7,116 nucleotides of DNA, taken from contig JBKPCR010000424.1 of assembly GCA_046727435.1 (NCBI GenBank), positions 1-7,116 of the forward strand. Reading direction: 5' to 3'. This DNA is from CAVPRW01 sp046727435 [NCBI: bacterium] (GTDB lineage: Bacteria > Tectomicrobia > Entotheonellia > J063). How positions within the stretch are numbered: the first letter of the stretch is position 1; each line of letters starts with the position of its first letter. This document shows positions 899-7,116 of this stretch, in pieces. The notes under the pieces were generated by a model. The model did no database searches. It worked only from the letters and a program-made list of their open reading frames with translations, and had not been told where the DNA came from. The translations under genes and the position numbers were made by a program.

Positions 899-907
899 CG
901 AAGGATA

Positions 908-970
908 GTCCTGAGTCCTGAGTGTAGGAAAGCTTTACTCTTCAGGACTCAGCACTCAGGACTCAGCACT
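908..970. repeat. Inverted repeat built from ACTCAG(G/C) heptamers
   Basis: The right side carries a 14-base unit, TCAGGACTCAGCAC, twice in tandem (942-955 and 956-969). It resolves into heptamers ACTCAGC (947-953), ACTCAGG (954-960) and ACTCAGC (961-967). The left side has the opposite orientation, CCTGAGT at 910-916 and 917-923. Bases 908-924 and 953-969 can pair at 16 of 17 positions around a 28-base loop, so either strand's transcript could fold. The element fills most of the gap between the FAH-family stop and the acyl-CoA synthetase ribosome site. On the minus strand no T-run follows the hairpin, so it does not look like a simple intrinsic terminator for the FAH gene. It could be a transcript-stabilising or attenuating hairpin, or a copy of a dispersed intergenic repeat family. 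Confidence 0.8.
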
Positions 971-2404: not shown

Positions 2405-3673
2405 ATGGCACAGAAGCAGCGCGTGGTGATTACGGGTCTCGGCGCCATTGCCCCAAACGGCATCGGCAAGGAGGCTTTTTGGGAGAGCCTGATCCAGGGA
2501 CGCTCTGGGATCTGCCGGATCACGCACTTCGATGCCAGTCAGTTCCCTTGTCAGATCGCGGGAGAGGTAACTGGTTTTCAGCCGACTTCATTCATCGACC
2601 GACAAGATGTGAAGCGCATGTCGCGTGTCTCTCAATTCGCCGTTGTTGCGGCCAAGATGGCCTGCGACAACGCAGGCTTTGAGGTCACAGCAGCGAACGC
2701 CAGAAGGATCGGAGTCTGCTTTGGGACCTCGGCAGGGATGGGCGAGATCTTCGAGACCTCGCACCTTCCATTCTTGGACAGGGGAGTCCGTGGGATCCAT
2801 CCCTCCGCAATGTTCGAGTTTTCCCCCCATGGAGTGTCGAGTCACGTCGCAATTGCACTAGGTGCCAGTGGAGTCTGTGGGTCAGTTTCCACAGGTTGTA
2901 CGGCGGGACTGGACGCCCTCCATTGGGGCTATCTGCGGCTTTGTTCTGGACATGCCTCGATTATGGTTGTTGGGGGCGCTGAAGCCTTACTGAGCCCGTT
3001 TGCATTTGGTGCCATCTGTGCGTCTGGGGTGCTCTCGAAGCGCAACGAGTCACCCGAGGAAGCCTCACGACCCTTCGATTTTCATCGGGACGGCATGGTC
3101 CTGAGCGAAGGTGCCGGCGCAGTCGTCCTGGAAACATTAGCGCAGGCGCTGGAACGTGAGGCCCCCATCTATGCGGAGGTTCTTGGGTGTACTACGGTGC
3201 GCGACGGCCCAGAGCTTTTCAGGTGTGACCTCAGCGGCTCAGACATGGCACGGGTGATGGAAATCGCCCTCTACGAGTCGGGGCTGTCAAAATCGTGTAT
3301 CGACTATATCAATGCCCATGCTCTGGGTTTCCGGGATTACGACATGGCCGAAACGAACGCCATTAAGGCCGTCTTCGGAGACCAGGCCTATCACATCCCT
3401 GTCAGCTCGCTGAAATCCATCATTGGACACCCCTTCGCAGCAGCAAGCGCTCTTCAGGTCGTGGCCTCCTGTTTGACCATACAGCACCAAATCATCTCTC
3501 CGACAATTAATTACAATACCCCCGACCCTTGCTGCGACCTTGATTACGTCCCGAACCGAGCACGCAGGGCGCGCGTGCGCACCCTCCTCGTACACGCGCA
3601 CGGCATGGGCGGAACCGACTCAGCGCTTGTGCTTGGGAAATATGACGCGACGTTGGAGTCACCATGGAGCTGA
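2405..3673 (+). CDS. Beta-ketoacyl-ACP synthase (FabF/KAS II-like) family protein
   Basis: Condensing enzyme of the thiolase fold, 422 residues, expected to join an acyl thioester to a malonyl-type extender by decarboxylative Claisen condensation. The N-terminus RVVITGLGAIAPNGIG (6-21) is typical of the family. The nucleophile is C165 in VSTGCTAGLDA. H305 (INAH), K337 (SSLKSIIGH) and H342 complete the active site, matching E. coli FabF C163, H303, K335 and H340. Because Cys is present it is not a chain-length factor. Two places are unusual. The loop after NAH reads ALGFRDYD instead of GTSTP-like, and the C-terminal loop reads HAHGMGGTD instead of NSFGFGGTN, so the FabF gate residue F400 is replaced by Met and F398 by His. 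These suggest a substrate other than ordinary fatty-acid chains. Start chosen at ATG 2405 by ribosome site and family alignment. It overlaps the kinase gene by 10 bases. No carrier protein, reductase or dehydratase gene is in the window, so primary versus secondary metabolism is open. Confidence 0.92.
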   Translation: MAQKQRVVITGLGAIAPNGIGKEAFWESLIQGRSGICRITHFDASQFPCQIAGEVTGFQPTSFIDRQDVKRMSRVSQFAVVAAKMACDNAGFEVTAANARRIGVCFGTSAGMGEIFETSHLPFLDRGVRGIHPSAMFEFSPHGVSSHVAIALGASGVCGSVSTGCTAGLDALHWGYLRLCSGHASIMVVGGAEALLSPFAFGAICASGVLSKRNESPEEASRPFDFHRDGMVLSEGAGAVVLETLAQALEREAPIYAEVLGCTTVRDGPELFRCDLSGSDMARVMEIALYESGLSKSCIDYINAHALGFRDYDMAETNAIKAVFGDQAYHIPVSSLKSIIGHPFAAASALQVVASCLTIQHQIISPTINYNTPDPCCDLDYVPNRARRARVRTLLVHAHGMGGTDSALVLGKYDATLESPWS

Positions 3674-6168
3674 ATCTCGTCGCGACCTTGCCTCTATGGA
3701 TGATCAACCTTGCCCTGGCGGGGCTAGTCTATTGCCGGCGCCCTCGAAAACTGTGTCATCATGCCTTTGCGGTGTTTGTCTCGATGATCGTCAGCTGGTC
3801 GTTCTGCACGACCATGTTCTATGTATACGCCGCTCATCCTTCCCAACTCCTGTGGGGGCGCCTAGCTTTTACTGCCGTCTGCCTTATTGGGAGTACCTTT
3901 ACTGTCTTCTGCCAAGTCTTCCCAGATCGCGATAACCTGAGACTGAGTAGGAAGAGCCGCTTCCTCGTTCTGCTAGGCCTGCTGTTGGCCGGCCTCAGCC
4001 TCACACCGATGATTCTGCGTCGTCTAGACATCACCAGTACAGGAGGTGTTCAGCGTAACTACGGCCCCATGTACTCGGTGTTCGGCGGGTATATATTGAC
4101 CGTGCTCGGTCATGGGGTTTGGACCTTGGCCAGACAATGGCAGAGCGCCCGTGGGCGTAGTCGGCTCCAGATTCAGTATCTTGGATTGGGCTTGTGCTTG
4201 TTCTTTTGCGGCGGCGTCACCACGAATCTCATCATTCCTACCTTGATTCCAAGCACGCGTGCTGGCCTCCATGGTCCGTATTTCAGCCTGTTTCTGGTCG
4301 GCTTGACGGCCCATGCAATTATTCGGCATCGCCTCATGGACATGCGAGTGGTCATCCGCCAGAGCGTGACTTATGGTTTATCAGCAGGAGCCGCCGTGGG
4401 TATCATCTGGGGTCTCTTCCTCGCTATCGACAAGGGGCTTGGGGTCAAATTCCAGCCATCCTCGGCCTTTCTTCCGCTGATGATTGGTGGTGCCGGCGCT
4501 ATCGTTTTTCATCCAATTCGAACCACCATCCAGTACTTACTTGATCGCTACTGTTACCGCAGGGAATACGATTATCGTCAGGCCATTCGGATAATCAGTC
4601 AGGTGTTGGCCAGTCTTCTACGCATCGACCCTCTATGCGAGCGCCTGACCATGTTCATCCTCAACACGCTCAAAGTAGAAGAGGTAGCCGTGTACCTGTG
4701 CCACGAGGACTCGTTCATCGAACAGCGCTCGTACCAACACGCAAGCAATGGAGAGCAAGGCCAGACAGGTGCTCTCACCATGGTATCCCCCAGCCTTATG
4801 ACGCTGCTTGAGCGCGCCCGTCAGCCCATTCTCCAGGATGAGTTGGCGCTCTGGACAGATGTGAGTGATCAGGCACATCTGCATGAAGAGTTCATGCTCC
4901 TGCGCAGCCAAGTGCTCATCCCCCTGTTCATTGAGCAGGAGGTTGCCGGCTTCATCGCGGTTGGCGAAAAACGTTCAGGCGATCCGTTCTTCACCCAGGA
5001 TATCGAATTCCTGGCGACGATCGGTCATCAGGCAGACGCGGCATTGAAACGGGGCCAGCTCCACGAAGAAGTGGCCTGGATGAAGGAATATAACGAAAGT
5101 ATTCTGCGACACATGAAGAGTGGGCTAGTGGTGATCAGTCACGACAATCTGATCACGGTGGTGAACGAAGCGGCGGCACGTATGCTGGGGATACATGCCA
5201 CGGAGATCGTCGGCCAGCCTCTCGAAAAGCTCATCGCGTGTGGACTGGGGCTACCGCTCCTCGATACTCTCCTAGAAAAGACGGTCTATACCAACCACGA
5301 AGCTACACTCATGACCGGCTCGGGGCAGACCCTGCCCGTCGTCTTGAGCACGTCGATTCTGCATGGGGAGGATGATCAGCCTAACGGGGCAATCTTGGCG
5401 TTCAATGATCTGTCACAGATCAAAGCCCTTGAAGAAGAAAAGCGCCGCATCGAACGCCTGGCTTCTATTGGCGCCTTCATGGCCGGTATCGCCCATGAAA
5501 TCAAAAACCCCTTGGTCGCCATCAAGACGTTGGCGGAACTTTTGCCGGAGCAATACGATGACGTGGAATTCCGCGAGACATTTACGAAAGTGACGCTCAG
5601 TGAGGTCGACCGTATCGACGGGTTAGTGCGTCGGCTGCGAAGCTTGTCAAGTGGTTCCACCGTGCCGTTGCATCCGCTAAACATCCTCGCTCCTCTCGAA
5701 GAGACGCTTTCTCTGGTATCTGGTGAGCTCACGCGCCACCACATTAATGTGATACGTGACTATCAGTCACCAGTACCACCGATCATGGGCGATCACGATC
5801 AACTGAAGCAAGTATTTGTGAATCTTTGTTTGAATAGTGTTGAAGCAATAGGGGAGGTCGGGACGCTGATGGTGACCGTGGAGAATCGAGATAAACCTGT
5901 CGGGCAGGCATCCGAGTTGATCATTCAGATCGCCGATACGGGTTCGGGCATTCCCGCCGAACACCTCTCCACTATCTTTGATCCCTTCTTTACGTTGAAA
6001 GAGCAGGGGACCGGCTTGGGATTAGCGATTTGCCGAGGCATTATCGACTACCATCGCGGGTCGATTACTGCAGCGAACAGTTCTGAGGACTCCGGAGCGG
6101 TCTTCACGGTTAAACTTCCAGTGGTACAGGGAGTCGAGGGGTATGAAAGCACTGTTGCTGGTGGCTAA
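3664..6168 (+). CDS. Membrane sensor histidine kinase (multi-TM, GAF, PAS, HisKA, HATPase)
   Basis: Inner-membrane sensor kinase of 834 residues. About eight to nine hydrophobic segments lie within residues 8-285 (roughly 8-23, 33-55, 65-85, 100-118, 138-155, 170-192, 205-220, 235-255, 268-285). The RHRLMDMRVVIRQSVTYGL stretch resembles N-terminal 7TM-type kinase sensors. A GAF-like domain follows (about 305-462), then a PAS domain (about 475-590; SGLVVISHDNLITVVNEAA, ATEIVGQPLEKL). The dimerisation domain has its phospho-acceptor H611 in AGIAHEIKNPL. The ATPase domain shows the N box around N724 (NLCLNSVEAI), G1 DTGSGIP (758-764), the F box FDPFFT and G2 GTGLGLAI (782-789). All catalytic motifs are intact, and no receiver domain is fused. 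ATG 3664 has GGAG (3655-3658) 5 bases upstream and overlaps the ketosynthase stop, which implies coupling. The layout is similar to PrsK-like kinases of PEP-CTERM systems, but the PAS domain and context prevent that name. The signal is unknown. Confidence 0.95.
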   Translation: MELNLVATLPLWMINLALAGLVYCRRPRKLCHHAFAVFVSMIVSWSFCTTMFYVYAAHPSQLLWGRLAFTAVCLIGSTFTVFCQVFPDRDNLRLSRKSRFLVLLGLLLAGLSLTPMILRRLDITSTGGVQRNYGPMYSVFGGYILTVLGHGVWTLARQWQSARGRSRLQIQYLGLGLCLFFCGGVTTNLIIPTLIPSTRAGLHGPYFSLFLVGLTAHAIIRHRLMDMRVVIRQSVTYGLSAGAAVGIIWGLFLAIDKGLGVKFQPSSAFLPLMIGGAGAIVFHPIRTTIQYLLDRYCYRREYDYRQAIRIISQVLASLLRIDPLCERLTMFILNTLKVEEVAVYLCHEDSFIEQRSYQHASNGEQGQTGALTMVSPSLMTLLERARQPILQDELALWTDVSDQAHLHEEFMLLRSQVLIPLFIEQEVAGFIAVGEKRSGDPFFTQDIEFLATIGHQADAALKRGQLHEEVAWMKEYNESILRHMKSGLVVISHDNLITVVNEAAARMLGIHATEIVGQPLEKLIACGLGLPLLDTLLEKTVYTNHEATLMTGSGQTLPVVLSTSILHGEDDQPNGAILAFNDLSQIKALEEEKRRIERLASIGAFMAGIAHEIKNPLVAIKTLAELLPEQYDDVEFRETFTKVTLSEVDRIDGLVRRLRSLSSGSTVPLHPLNILAPLEETLSLVSGELTRHHINVIRDYQSPVPPIMGDHDQLKQVFVNLCLNSVEAIGEVGTLMVTVENRDKPVGQASELIIQIADTGSGIPAEHLSTIFDPFFTLKEQGTGLGLAICRGIIDYHRGSITAANSSEDSGAVFTVKLPVVQGVEGYESTVAGG

Positions 6169-7116
6169 CAAGCAAGAACGACTCACCCAGTTGCAGAAGT
6201 TGCTCGGTGAGACGCATACGCTGTTCACAGCTGAATCTCCGGCAGATGCCGTGGAGTTCCTGCAGCTCACCAAGGTGGACGTGGTGATAGGGGCCTTTGA
6301 CACGCGTTCTCCGCAAATCGTCCAGTTTTTCGAGCAAATCAAGACGGTGCAACGCCACTGCGTCACCCTCTACTTGGCACCTCCGCCTCCCCCCGACGGT
6401 GCGAGTGAGGAGACATCCATTCCCCGAACCGACTTTGTCCTGCGCCGTCCATTCTCCCGTGAGGATCTCTGCCAGGTCATTGACCAAGCTCTGGAAAAAC
6501 AGCACCTGCTCGAAGAACTCGCCTCCGTGCGCGGTCAGGCAGGAGCCCAACCCGCTCCAGTCGCTCCCAAGCTCAACAACGATCTATCGCTGTCAAGGAT
6601 TGGGCAGATCCTGCGGGATTTCGCCAAGGCCTTCAGTGCGAAGTCCGATTTACACCGCGCCCTGAATCTGTTTCTCGATGCCATTGGAGAATTCCTGCGC
6701 CCGAGTCGGATGTCGATCCTCGTTCGCAATACCACCACTCGTGAGTTCGCGATACGTGCCCACCGCGGCCTTCAGCCTCAGATCGCTGACAGCCTACGCC
6801 TCCGCGCCAACGAGGGGCTACCGCTGTGGCTCATGACGGAGGCCCGAATCCTCCATCGTGCCGAGGTCGAAAGTCATCTGCACACGCCGATTTACCTGGA
6901 TGTCCATCGTGAGATGCAAGCCCTGCGGACGGTGGCGAGCATCCCCTTGATCGCCTCCAGCAGCCTAGTTGGCATCCTCAATCTCGGTGAACGCGTCACC
7001 GGCCTGCCATACACCGATGACGAGCTCGAGATCCTGTTCAGCTTAGCTGGCCAGGTGGCCATCAGCATCCAAGACATCAATCTGCAAGAGGAGTTCCAAT
7101 CGCAGAAGACGTGCAT
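6143..7116 (+). CDS. Degenerate receiver plus GAF domain signalling protein, N-terminal part
   Basis: 324 codons are in the window and the gene continues beyond the right edge. Residues 1-120 have the length and pattern of a response-regulator receiver (MKALLLVANKQERL, VDVVIGAFD, FVLRRPFSREDL). The key residues are gone, however. The N-terminal acidic pair is replaced by ANK, the phospho-acceptor position in VVIGA is Ala51 (nearest Asp is D53), and the conserved Lys before PF is Arg102. A Pro-rich and polar linker (80-90, 130-147) leads to a GAF domain of about residues 165-312 (SILVRNTTTREFAIRAHRGL, VASIPLIASSSLVGILNLGE, TDDELEILFSLAGQVAISI). ATG 6143 is preceded by AGGGAG (6128-6133) at 9 bases and overlaps the kinase gene by 26 bases. 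The missing C-terminus could hold a kinase, a sigma-54 AAA+ output or a cyclic-di-GMP domain. It is probably a partner or modulator of the upstream kinase rather than a classical phospho-accepting regulator. Confidence 0.85.
   Translation, partial: MKALLLVANKQERLTQLQKLLGETHTLFTAESPADAVEFLQLTKVDVVIGAFDTRSPQIVQFFEQIKTVQRHCVTLYLAPPPPPDGASEETSIPRTDFVLRRPFSREDLCQVIDQALEKQHLLEELASVRGQAGAQPAPVAPKLNNDLSLSRIGQILRDFAKAFSAKSDLHRALNLFLDAIGEFLRPSRMSILVRNTTTREFAIRAHRGLQPQIADSLRLRANEGLPLWLMTEARILHRAEVESHLHTPIYLDVHREMQALRTVASIPLIASSSLVGILNLGERVTGLPYTDDELEILFSLAGQVAISIQDINLQEEFQSQKTC

What the first reader, a model, noticed from the sequence alone, without database searches (positions are those of the whole stretch)
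2405..6168. Ketosynthase translationally coupled to a multi-span sensor kinase: possible signal synthase and receptor pair
Seen: the condensing enzyme's last codons overlap the kinase start by 10 bases, and the kinase has a large multi-TM N-terminus suited to sensing a membrane-soluble or lipid-like ligand. No acyl carrier protein, reductase or dehydratase is adjacent. Known: stand-alone ketosynthase-like enzymes make signals in some bacteria (photopyrone synthase PpyS, PqsD), and small-molecule synthases can lie next to multi-TM kinases (CqsA/CqsS, LqsA/LqsS). Inference: this pair could be an undescribed acyl-signal circuit. The alternative is a lipid or secondary-metabolite cluster with a co-located regulator.
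Basis: partly seen in the sequence, partly recalled or inferred. Interest (0 to 1): 0.7.

Follow-up and report, generated by a model that had tools for sequence, protein, structure and literature searches.

The report
Ketosynthase–7TM sensor kinase gene module
A fatty-acid-type condensing enzyme is genetically tied to a seven-helix membrane sensor kinase and further regulators in distantly related bacteria, which suggests an undescribed circuit in which a cell makes and senses its own lipid-like molecule, although the molecule itself has not been seen.

Summary
In detail: a FabF/KAS II-type ketosynthase (2405-3673) overlaps by 10 bases a 7TM-GAF-PAS-HisKA-HATPase kinase (3664-6168). The pair is not local: kinase-linked ketosynthases occur in Kuenenia's order (7TM kinase in 26 of 27 fetched loci), in desulfobacteria (same gene run in 17 of 17 testable loci) and in a planctomycete with the window's gene order. 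Of 87 other ketosynthase loci, 1 had a 7TM kinase on the fetched stretch. An ACP-like gene sits in 29 of 30 FabF controls and 0 of 32 family loci. Frequent companions are an NtrC-type regulator, an HD-GYP regulator and a second receiver/GAF/PAS or AAA-HisKA protein that is only sometimes a complete kinase; some loci add tailoring enzymes. Rivals: a regulated lipid pathway, or a ketosynthase that senses acyl-ACP. Against autoinduction, a simple scan found no sigma-54 promoter upstream in 23 loci.

The parts
2405..3673 (+). FabF/KAS II-type ketosynthase, 422 aa; Cys165, His305, Lys337, His342
   Evidence: C165, H305 and K337 invariant in 36 of 36 aligned rows (35 distinct genes), position 342 is His in 18 rows and Gln in 18
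3664..3673 (+). 10-base overlap of KS end and kinase start
3664..6168 (+). membrane histidine kinase: 7TM (residues 13-227), GAF (322-461), PAS (478-582), HisKA (603-663), HATPase_c (709-820)
   Evidence: motifs; model; a 7TM profile built without the window hits it at 123 bits, 2.7e-36
6143..7114 (+). third gene, runs off the window: receiver-like part without the canonical phospho-Asp (VDVVIGAFD), then GAF; probably the start of a receiver-GAF-PAS protein, with or without a kinase part
   Evidence: blastp to the L135 receiver-GAF-PAS-kinase 23% over 339 aa, 3e-24; tblastn to L001 3.9e-16; domains of L135, L094, L097 and L182
2292..2319 (+). sigma-70-like promoter candidate (TCGAAA-16-TATAAT, 10 of 12)
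   Evidence: a consensus match only (2 found, 0.5 expected in shuffles)

Best explanation
A self-contained lipid-signal circuit. The KS takes acyl and malonyl groups from the cell's own fatty-acid ACP pool (no dedicated ACP) and makes a beta-ketoacyl-derived hydrophobic molecule, in some lineages further tailored (methylation, reduction, cyclisation, radical SAM chemistry). The 7TM domain of the adjacent kinase binds it in or at the membrane and changes kinase activity; the signal goes, with a soluble receiver/GAF/PAS or AAA-HisKA protein as a second input, to an NtrC-type regulator and often an HD-GYP regulator. Shown: gene order, overlap, domains, intact motifs of KS and kinase, conservation of the linkage. 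Inferred: the product, its binding by the 7TM domain, the direction of phosphotransfer, and what follows the window's end.
For: 7TM kinase on the fetched stretch: 26 of 27 loci of Kuenenia's order, 12 of 17 desulfobacterial loci with 1.5 kb flanks, against 0 of 54 FabF loci of three other phyla, 0 of 3 FabF loci of Kuenenia's order and 1 of 30 other KS loci. With wider sequence 17 of 17 testable desulfobacterial loci have it in the same gene run (15; L140 and L141 show its start; L138 and L139 end too early). L135 has the window's order KS - 7TM kinase - receiver-GAF-PAS-kinase - NtrC. Score separation from FabF: 16 hits of 620 bits or more in 14 of 198 genomes, next 584; 26 genomes at 6.7e-204 or better plus G300 at 1.3e-178, next 1.2e-126. 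Catalytic Cys, first His and Lys invariant. ACP-like gene 0 of 32 versus 29 of 30 FabF controls. KS and kinase identities correlate, r = 0.78, Mantel p 0.0005, 21 loci. Tailoring enzymes in some loci: ICMT, SDR, SRPBCC cyclase, B12 radical SAM. Known parallel: phcB-phcS-phcR-phcQ, where PhcR has a receiver and a kinase domain and no DNA-binding domain (PMC8578825 passages).
Against: No product or ligand known. No sigma-54-like site above shuffled background upstream of 23 KS gene runs (home-made score, no positive control). The second catalytic His is Gln in 18 of 36 rows, though His in the window. The window's first-His motif is AHALGF, not AHGTST. In L128 KS and kinase stand without the other module genes. 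No tailoring enzyme is visible in the window. The second signalling protein is not always a kinase: no HATPase_c match in L094, L097, L182 nor in the AAA-HisKA proteins of L126, L127, L130, L136. In the tree the kinase-linked KS are not an exclusive clade: Chloroflexota KS and L008 fall among them, support under 95. The 7TM fold gave no solved-structure match at E <= 0.001. Correlated divergence is also expected from shared descent.
Confidence: 0.4

Rival explanations
1. Regulated lipid or secondary-metabolite pathway: the KS contributes to a membrane lipid or metabolite that is not a signal, and the kinase and NtrC regulator sense an outside cue and control that pathway or other genes.
For: FadL-type outer-membrane protein genes near the module in L001, L002, L094, L095, L097, L135 and L136, Mla lipid-transport genes beside L001; tailoring enzymes; extra KS genes in L095, L096, L182, L183; Kuenenia's unusual lipids and many FabF paralogues (PMC2649909).
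Against: No ACP-like gene with the family KS; the domain tables that I ran show no AT or dehydratase, and one SDR gene (L136), but not every neighbouring gene was scanned; the place that matches the published kuste2802-2805 ladderane candidates is elsewhere in the Kuenenia genome, and its B12 radical SAM has no blastp hit at 1e-5 to the module's.
Confidence: 0.32
2. KS as an intracellular sensor: the ketosynthase binds acyl- or malonyl-ACP and reports lipid-synthesis status to the kinase by contact, with little or no product made.
For: Decarboxylation His is Gln in 18 of 36 rows while Cys, first His and Lys stay; overlap or short gaps to the kinase (-10 to 44 bases where it is the next gene) would suit a complex; no ACP-like gene.
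Against: Window and 17 further rows keep Cys-His-His; tailoring enzymes in several loci would be unexplained; kinases keep their own 7TM and GAF domains.
Confidence: 0.2
3. Chance neighbourhood of a FabF paralogue and a common kinase type.
For: 1 of 30 unrelated KS loci (L025) also has a 7TM kinase on the fetched stretch.
Against: Linkage kept across at least two phyla and absent from 57 FabF control loci.
Confidence: 0.02

Closest known systems
PhcBSRQ quorum-sensing operon (Ralstonia)
   Same: synthase gene beside a sensor kinase, then a soluble protein with receiver and kinase domains and no DNA-binding domain, then a receiver-domain regulator; fatty-acid-derived signal (PMC8578825, abstract and passages)
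   Different: synthase there is a methyltransferase (PhcB), here a ketosynthase; NtrC-type and HD-GYP regulators in relatives here; the second protein here is a full kinase in only some relatives; no signal demonstrated
Rpf/DSF system (RpfF-RpfC-RpfG; recalled)
   Same: fatty-acid-derived signal, multi-TM kinase, HD-GYP regulator (HD-GYP seen in relatives)
   Different: RpfF is a crotonase-type enzyme (recalled); none found here
CqsA/CqsS and LqsA/LqsS (recalled)
   Same: small-molecule synthase beside a multi-TM kinase
   Different: CqsA/LqsA are PLP-dependent synthases (recalled), not ketosynthases
PpyS/PyrS photopyrone-type ketosynthases
   Same: stand-alone ketosynthase making a signal
   Different: FabH-derived with Cys-His-Asn (PMC4578411 passages); here FabF/KAS II-type with Cys-His-His; pyrone signals are tied to LuxR-type receptors (listing and abstracts)
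FabF / KAS II (TIGR03150, PRK07314)
   Same: domains and catalytic residues
   Different: below the FabF equivalog cut-off; no ACP-like neighbour; Asp at position 170 of the active-site loop in 29 of 36 rows, as recalled for type II PKS ketosynthases; linked to the kinase
PrsK/PrsR of XrtA/PEP-CTERM loci
   Same: membrane kinase with NtrC-type regulator (recalled)
   Different: PrsK model scores 101 bits against a cut-off of 300

Membership tests
FabF equivalog (TIGR03150) | score above curated cut-off 493.75 | tested here: not met
   403.9 bits; the broader PRK07314 subfamily is just met, 388.1 against 387
FabF / KAS II superfamily | both ketoacyl-synthase domains and Cys-His-His plus Lys | tested here: met
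   C165, H305, K337, H342; best solved relatives are FabF enzymes, E 5e-92
housekeeping FabF | ACP gene as neighbour | tested here: not met
   pattern for ACP-like small ORFs: 0 of 32 family loci (window included) against 29 of 30 FabF controls
PpyS/OleA (FabH-derived) ketosynthases | FabH-type family and Cys-His-Asn | tested here: not met
   PF00109/PF02801 hits and second His in the window; family features from PMC4578411 passages
HisKA_7TM kinases (PF16927) | N-terminal 7TM domain above gathering score | tested here: met
   44.2 bits against 28.6
PrsK (TIGR02916) | score above cut-off 300 | tested here: not met
   101.2 bits
PhcBSRQ-type operon | methyltransferase synthase | tested here: not met
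   none among the window's long ORFs; ICMT-like methyltransferases in L135, L136, L137, L142 only
PhcBSRQ-type operon | receiver+kinase protein after the membrane kinase | tested here: inconclusive
   met in L135; the window protein is cut off after GAF and its receiver lacks the phospho-Asp
quorum-sensing synthase/receptor pair | product of the synthase is the kinase's ligand | not testable with these tools
   needs biochemistry or genetics
quorum-sensing synthase/receptor pair | autoinduction of the synthase operon by the cognate regulator | tested here: inconclusive
   no sigma-54-like site above background in 350 bases upstream of 23 KS gene runs, lowest shuffle fraction 0.087; no positive control, other feedback routes not tested

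The most novel reading that the evidence does not exclude
A previously undescribed class of bacterial lipid-signal circuit, shared by Kuenenia's order, desulfobacteria and the window's lineage, in which a FabF-derived ketosynthase makes a hydrophobic signal read by its own 7TM kinase and passed through a second cytoplasmic signalling protein to NtrC-type and HD-GYP outputs.
Probability: 0.33. Interest if true: 0.85.

Novelty: new variant of a known kind. Interest (0 to 1): 0.6.

Why it matters
If true, it gives a chemical signalling system to anammox-type and sulfur-cycle anaerobes that matter for nitrogen and sulfur turnover, with a synthase type that I know from no kinase-linked quorum-sensing system. 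Even if the product is not a signal, this KS group marks an uncharacterised lipid or metabolite tied to a large regulatory relay, and one gene deletion with extract complementation would decide between the readings.

Tried and rejected
Chance adjacency: rejected by conservation with controls. Ordinary FAS locus: rejected, no ACP-like gene. Published ladderane-candidate cluster kuste2802-2805: the place of the same make-up in the Kuenenia genome (L175: AcpS, B12 radical SAM by Pfam, then two KS by blastp) has a radical SAM without blastp hit at 1e-5 to the module's, so the module is separate; that L175 is the kuste2802-2805 locus is inferred from gene order. Sigma-54 autoregulation: no support. 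Three Omnitrophota KS of intermediate score (594-610 bits, 3 of 126 genomes) have neighbours that read as ordinary FAS or LpxA-like genes by eye and no 7TM kinase on 10-17 kb, so the score gap seen in desulfobacteria is narrower elsewhere. Viral contigs: none with the single sequence; brought 80 loci of more distant KS that were not used. The phylum of L024's genome gave 0 of 100, without a positive control; the order of G723 holds only that genome. Fold search of the 7TM domain: weak GPCR-like hits, best E 0.0034, taken as no evidence. The KS model (mean pLDDT 78.1) was not used. The window's organism was not identified: no whole genome is held; best KS identity to a relative is 49%.

Limits: profiles A1, A3 and A4 were built from kinase-linked members, so a kinase-free outer branch could be under-sampled. 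Profile A1 does not separate desulfobacterial members (447-516 bits) from Nitrospirota FabF (436-468 bits), so the Nitrospirota search does not show absence: only the best 30 of 224 passing genomes were fetched, and these are FabF-like without a 7TM kinase. Phylum samples are partial. 148 KS ORFs were reduced to 112 distinct rows for a quick-method tree; the window is on a long branch. The 36-row alignment holds one gene twice (L086 and L183). ORFs come from a simple caller; some long genes are split (L096, L142, L143, L183). My note says 27 genomes below 1e-200 in Kuenenia's order; the right count is 26 plus G300.
Full report
What is in the window. Three co-directional, overlapping genes: a ketosynthase (2405-3673), a membrane histidine kinase (3664-6168) and a third gene (6143 to the end). 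The KS-kinase overlap is 10 bases, the kinase-third gene overlap 26. The KS has PF00109 and PF02801; it scores 403.9 against the FabF equivalog cut-off of 493.75 and 388.1 against 387 for the broader PRK07314 subfamily. Its closest solved relatives by sequence are FabF enzymes. The kinase has HisKA_7TM, GAF, PAS, HisKA and HATPase_c with intact kinase motifs. The third protein has a GAF domain and an N-terminal receiver-like part without the canonical phospho-Asp (sequence). On the other strand, about 470 bases away, are an FAA hydrolase and an AMP-binding acyl-CoA synthetase. No Rfam family reaches its threshold in the window. The source organism is unknown; G+C is 56.6%.

First look at relatives. 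A scan of the genome collection with the KS gave 32 loci. The two closest, Candidatus Kuenenia hertensis (L001, 47%) and a planctomycete MAG (L002, 45%), both have a homologue of the kinase directly downstream, matching residues 21-820 in L001 and 21-701, to the contig end, in L002. None of the other 30 had such a match next to the KS; L026 has a kinase-domain match 1.7 kb away, and L016, L019 and L025 have more distant ones. Kuenenia belongs to Candidatus Brocadiales.

The module in Kuenenia's order. In 62 genomes of that order a three-row KS profile gave 26 genomes at 6.7e-204 or better and G300 at 1.3e-178; the next match was 1.2e-126. In the 26 loci L063-L088 the 7TM kinase homologue follows the KS, and a radical SAM homologue precedes it in 24; L081 and L085 are cut by contig ends. 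A 7TM profile built without the window finds the kinase in 26 of 27 loci; in the exception, G300, it lies about 7 kb downstream on the same strand. In the nine wider loci with sequence upstream (L001, L002, L093-L097, L182, L183) the HMM scan finds a receiver-GAF-PAS(-kinase) protein in 9, radical SAM in 9, NtrC-type regulator in 7, HD-GYP regulator in 6 and FadL-type protein in 5 (two of these loci begin at a contig end). The second protein has an HATPase_c match in L001 and L002 but none in L094, L097 and L182. Two extra KS genes lie in L095, L096, L182 and L183.

The module in desulfobacteria. In 297 genomes of the phylum of L009 (record title Thermodesulfobacteriota) 15 genomes, 17 places, passed 1e-140. 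With profile A4, 198 genomes of the same phylum (shared handles) gave 16 places of at least 620 bits in 14 genomes and then a drop to 584; two of these genomes, G537 and G567, were new. Of the 19 loci together, L138 and L139 end too soon after the KS. The other 17 have the 7TM kinase downstream on the same strand: 15, and the first 54 and 86 residues of it in the cut loci L140 and L141. In 13 it is the next gene; in L136, L137, L142 and L143 one or two enzyme genes lie between (SDR and ICMT; SRPBCC cyclase and ICMT; the same; B12 radical SAM). In the 12 loci with sequence beyond the kinase, an AAA-HisKA protein follows in 8, an NtrC-type regulator in 9 and an HD-GYP regulator in 7 (L126, L134 and L143 end in the NtrC gene; L128 has none of them). 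The AAA-HisKA proteins of L126, L127, L130 and L136 have HisKA but no HATPase_c match. A planctomycete, G723 (L135), has KS - 7TM kinase - receiver-GAF-PAS-kinase - NtrC, the window's order; its kinase aligns with the window's over 817 aa at 32%, and its third protein with the window's at 3e-24.

Controls. 7TM kinase on the fetched stretch: 0 of 30 Nitrospirota, 0 of 12 Acidobacteriota and 0 of 12 Pseudomonadota FabF loci, 0 of 3 FabF loci of Kuenenia's order (all with about 1.5 kb flanks), 1 of 30 other loci (L025; flanks up to 10 kb); family loci with the same 1.5 kb flanks: 26 of 27 and 12 of 17, the misses being L089, three loci cut by contig ends (L100, L101, L109) and two with genes between (L103, L110). 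No hit near family level in 247 Acidobacteriota (best 577 bits) or 200 Pseudomonadota genomes (best 516) with profile A4. In Nitrospirota absence is not shown, because profile A1 does not separate desulfobacterial members from FabF. In 294 Planctomycetota genomes 14 passed: 13 relatives of Kuenenia and G723. ACP-like small ORF by pattern: 29 of 30 FabF controls, 0 of 32 family loci; one pattern match in L138 lies in the start of an SDR gene and was not counted.

Phylogeny and active site. In a 112-row tree the window falls in a 35-row clade (SH-aLRT 99) whose other members are kinase-linked, G300 with the kinase 7 kb away; a group of nine desulfobacterial KS (support 91) is near it, kinase-linked in the seven that can be tested. 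L135, L008 and Chloroflexota KS also branch there with support under 95, so the kinase-linked KS are not shown to be one exclusive clade. In 36 aligned rows (35 distinct genes) Cys165, His305 and Lys337 are invariant, position 342 is His in 18 (window included) and Gln in 18, and position 170 is Asp in 29. That an Asp there recalls type II PKS ketosynthases is from memory. KS and kinase identities correlate (r = 0.78, Mantel p 0.0005, 21 loci), as co-inheritance predicts.

How it most likely works. The stable link to a membrane sensor and to transcription and HD-GYP regulators, with no dedicated carrier protein, is best read as a circuit in which the KS diverts acyl-ACP into a hydrophobic molecule that the 7TM domain senses. 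The layout resembles phcBSRQ, where PhcR is a receiver plus kinase protein without DNA-binding domain (PMC8578825 passages), but with a ketosynthase as synthase. A polyketide signal is known from an anaerobe, Clostridium acetobutylicum (PMC5686105 passages), and ketosynthase-made signals from Photorhabdus (PMC4578411 passages), the latter from another KS branch. Against it: no product is known, no sigma-54-like sites stand out upstream of 23 KS gene runs, the Gln variants may not decarboxylate malonyl groups normally, and the second signalling protein is not always a kinase. Rivals are a regulated lipid pathway and a KS acting as an acyl-ACP sensor.

Relation to published anammox work. Rattray et al. 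2009 (PMC2649909; abstract, passages and section 9 read) discuss Kuenenia's FabF paralogues and a B12-radical SAM protein, Kuste2803; kuste2802 (AcpS) and kuste2805 (FabB-like) are listed there too. The term 'histidine kinase' does not occur in that text. The place of that make-up in the Kuenenia genome here (L175) is not the KS-kinase module. No title or abstract start listed in my searches describes a KS - 7TM kinase module (open-licence papers only, listings capped).

Noticed in passing
window 907-970: Tandem 14-mer and imperfect 18-base inverted repeat between the two - strand genes.
   Followed up: no
L127 12518-14065; also L126, L129, L130, L132, L133, L134, L136: A degenerate NtrC-type AAA domain (no GAFTGA by pattern in the seven checked) joined to HisKA without an HATPase_c match (Pfam on L126, L127, L130, L136), next to the 7TM kinase; an unusual chimera.
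   Followed up: partly
L095 4612-7137, L096 3494-6071, L182 4485-7066, L183 4849-7126: Two further ketosynthase genes between the NtrC and radical SAM genes; the first is much diverged.
   Followed up: partly
NtrC-type regulators of 16 module loci: The sigma-54 contact loop is GAFTNA in seven desulfobacterial loci (L126, L127, L129, L130, L132-L134), GAFTDA in L136, GSFTNA in L135, GAFTGA in L143 and L093, GSFTGA in L001, L096, L182, GSFTSA in L002, GAFAGA in L095.
   Followed up: no
L226-L253 (IMG/VR contigs, several over 50 kb): FabF-like ketosynthases at about 24-26% identity on long contigs of the viral collection.
   Followed up: no
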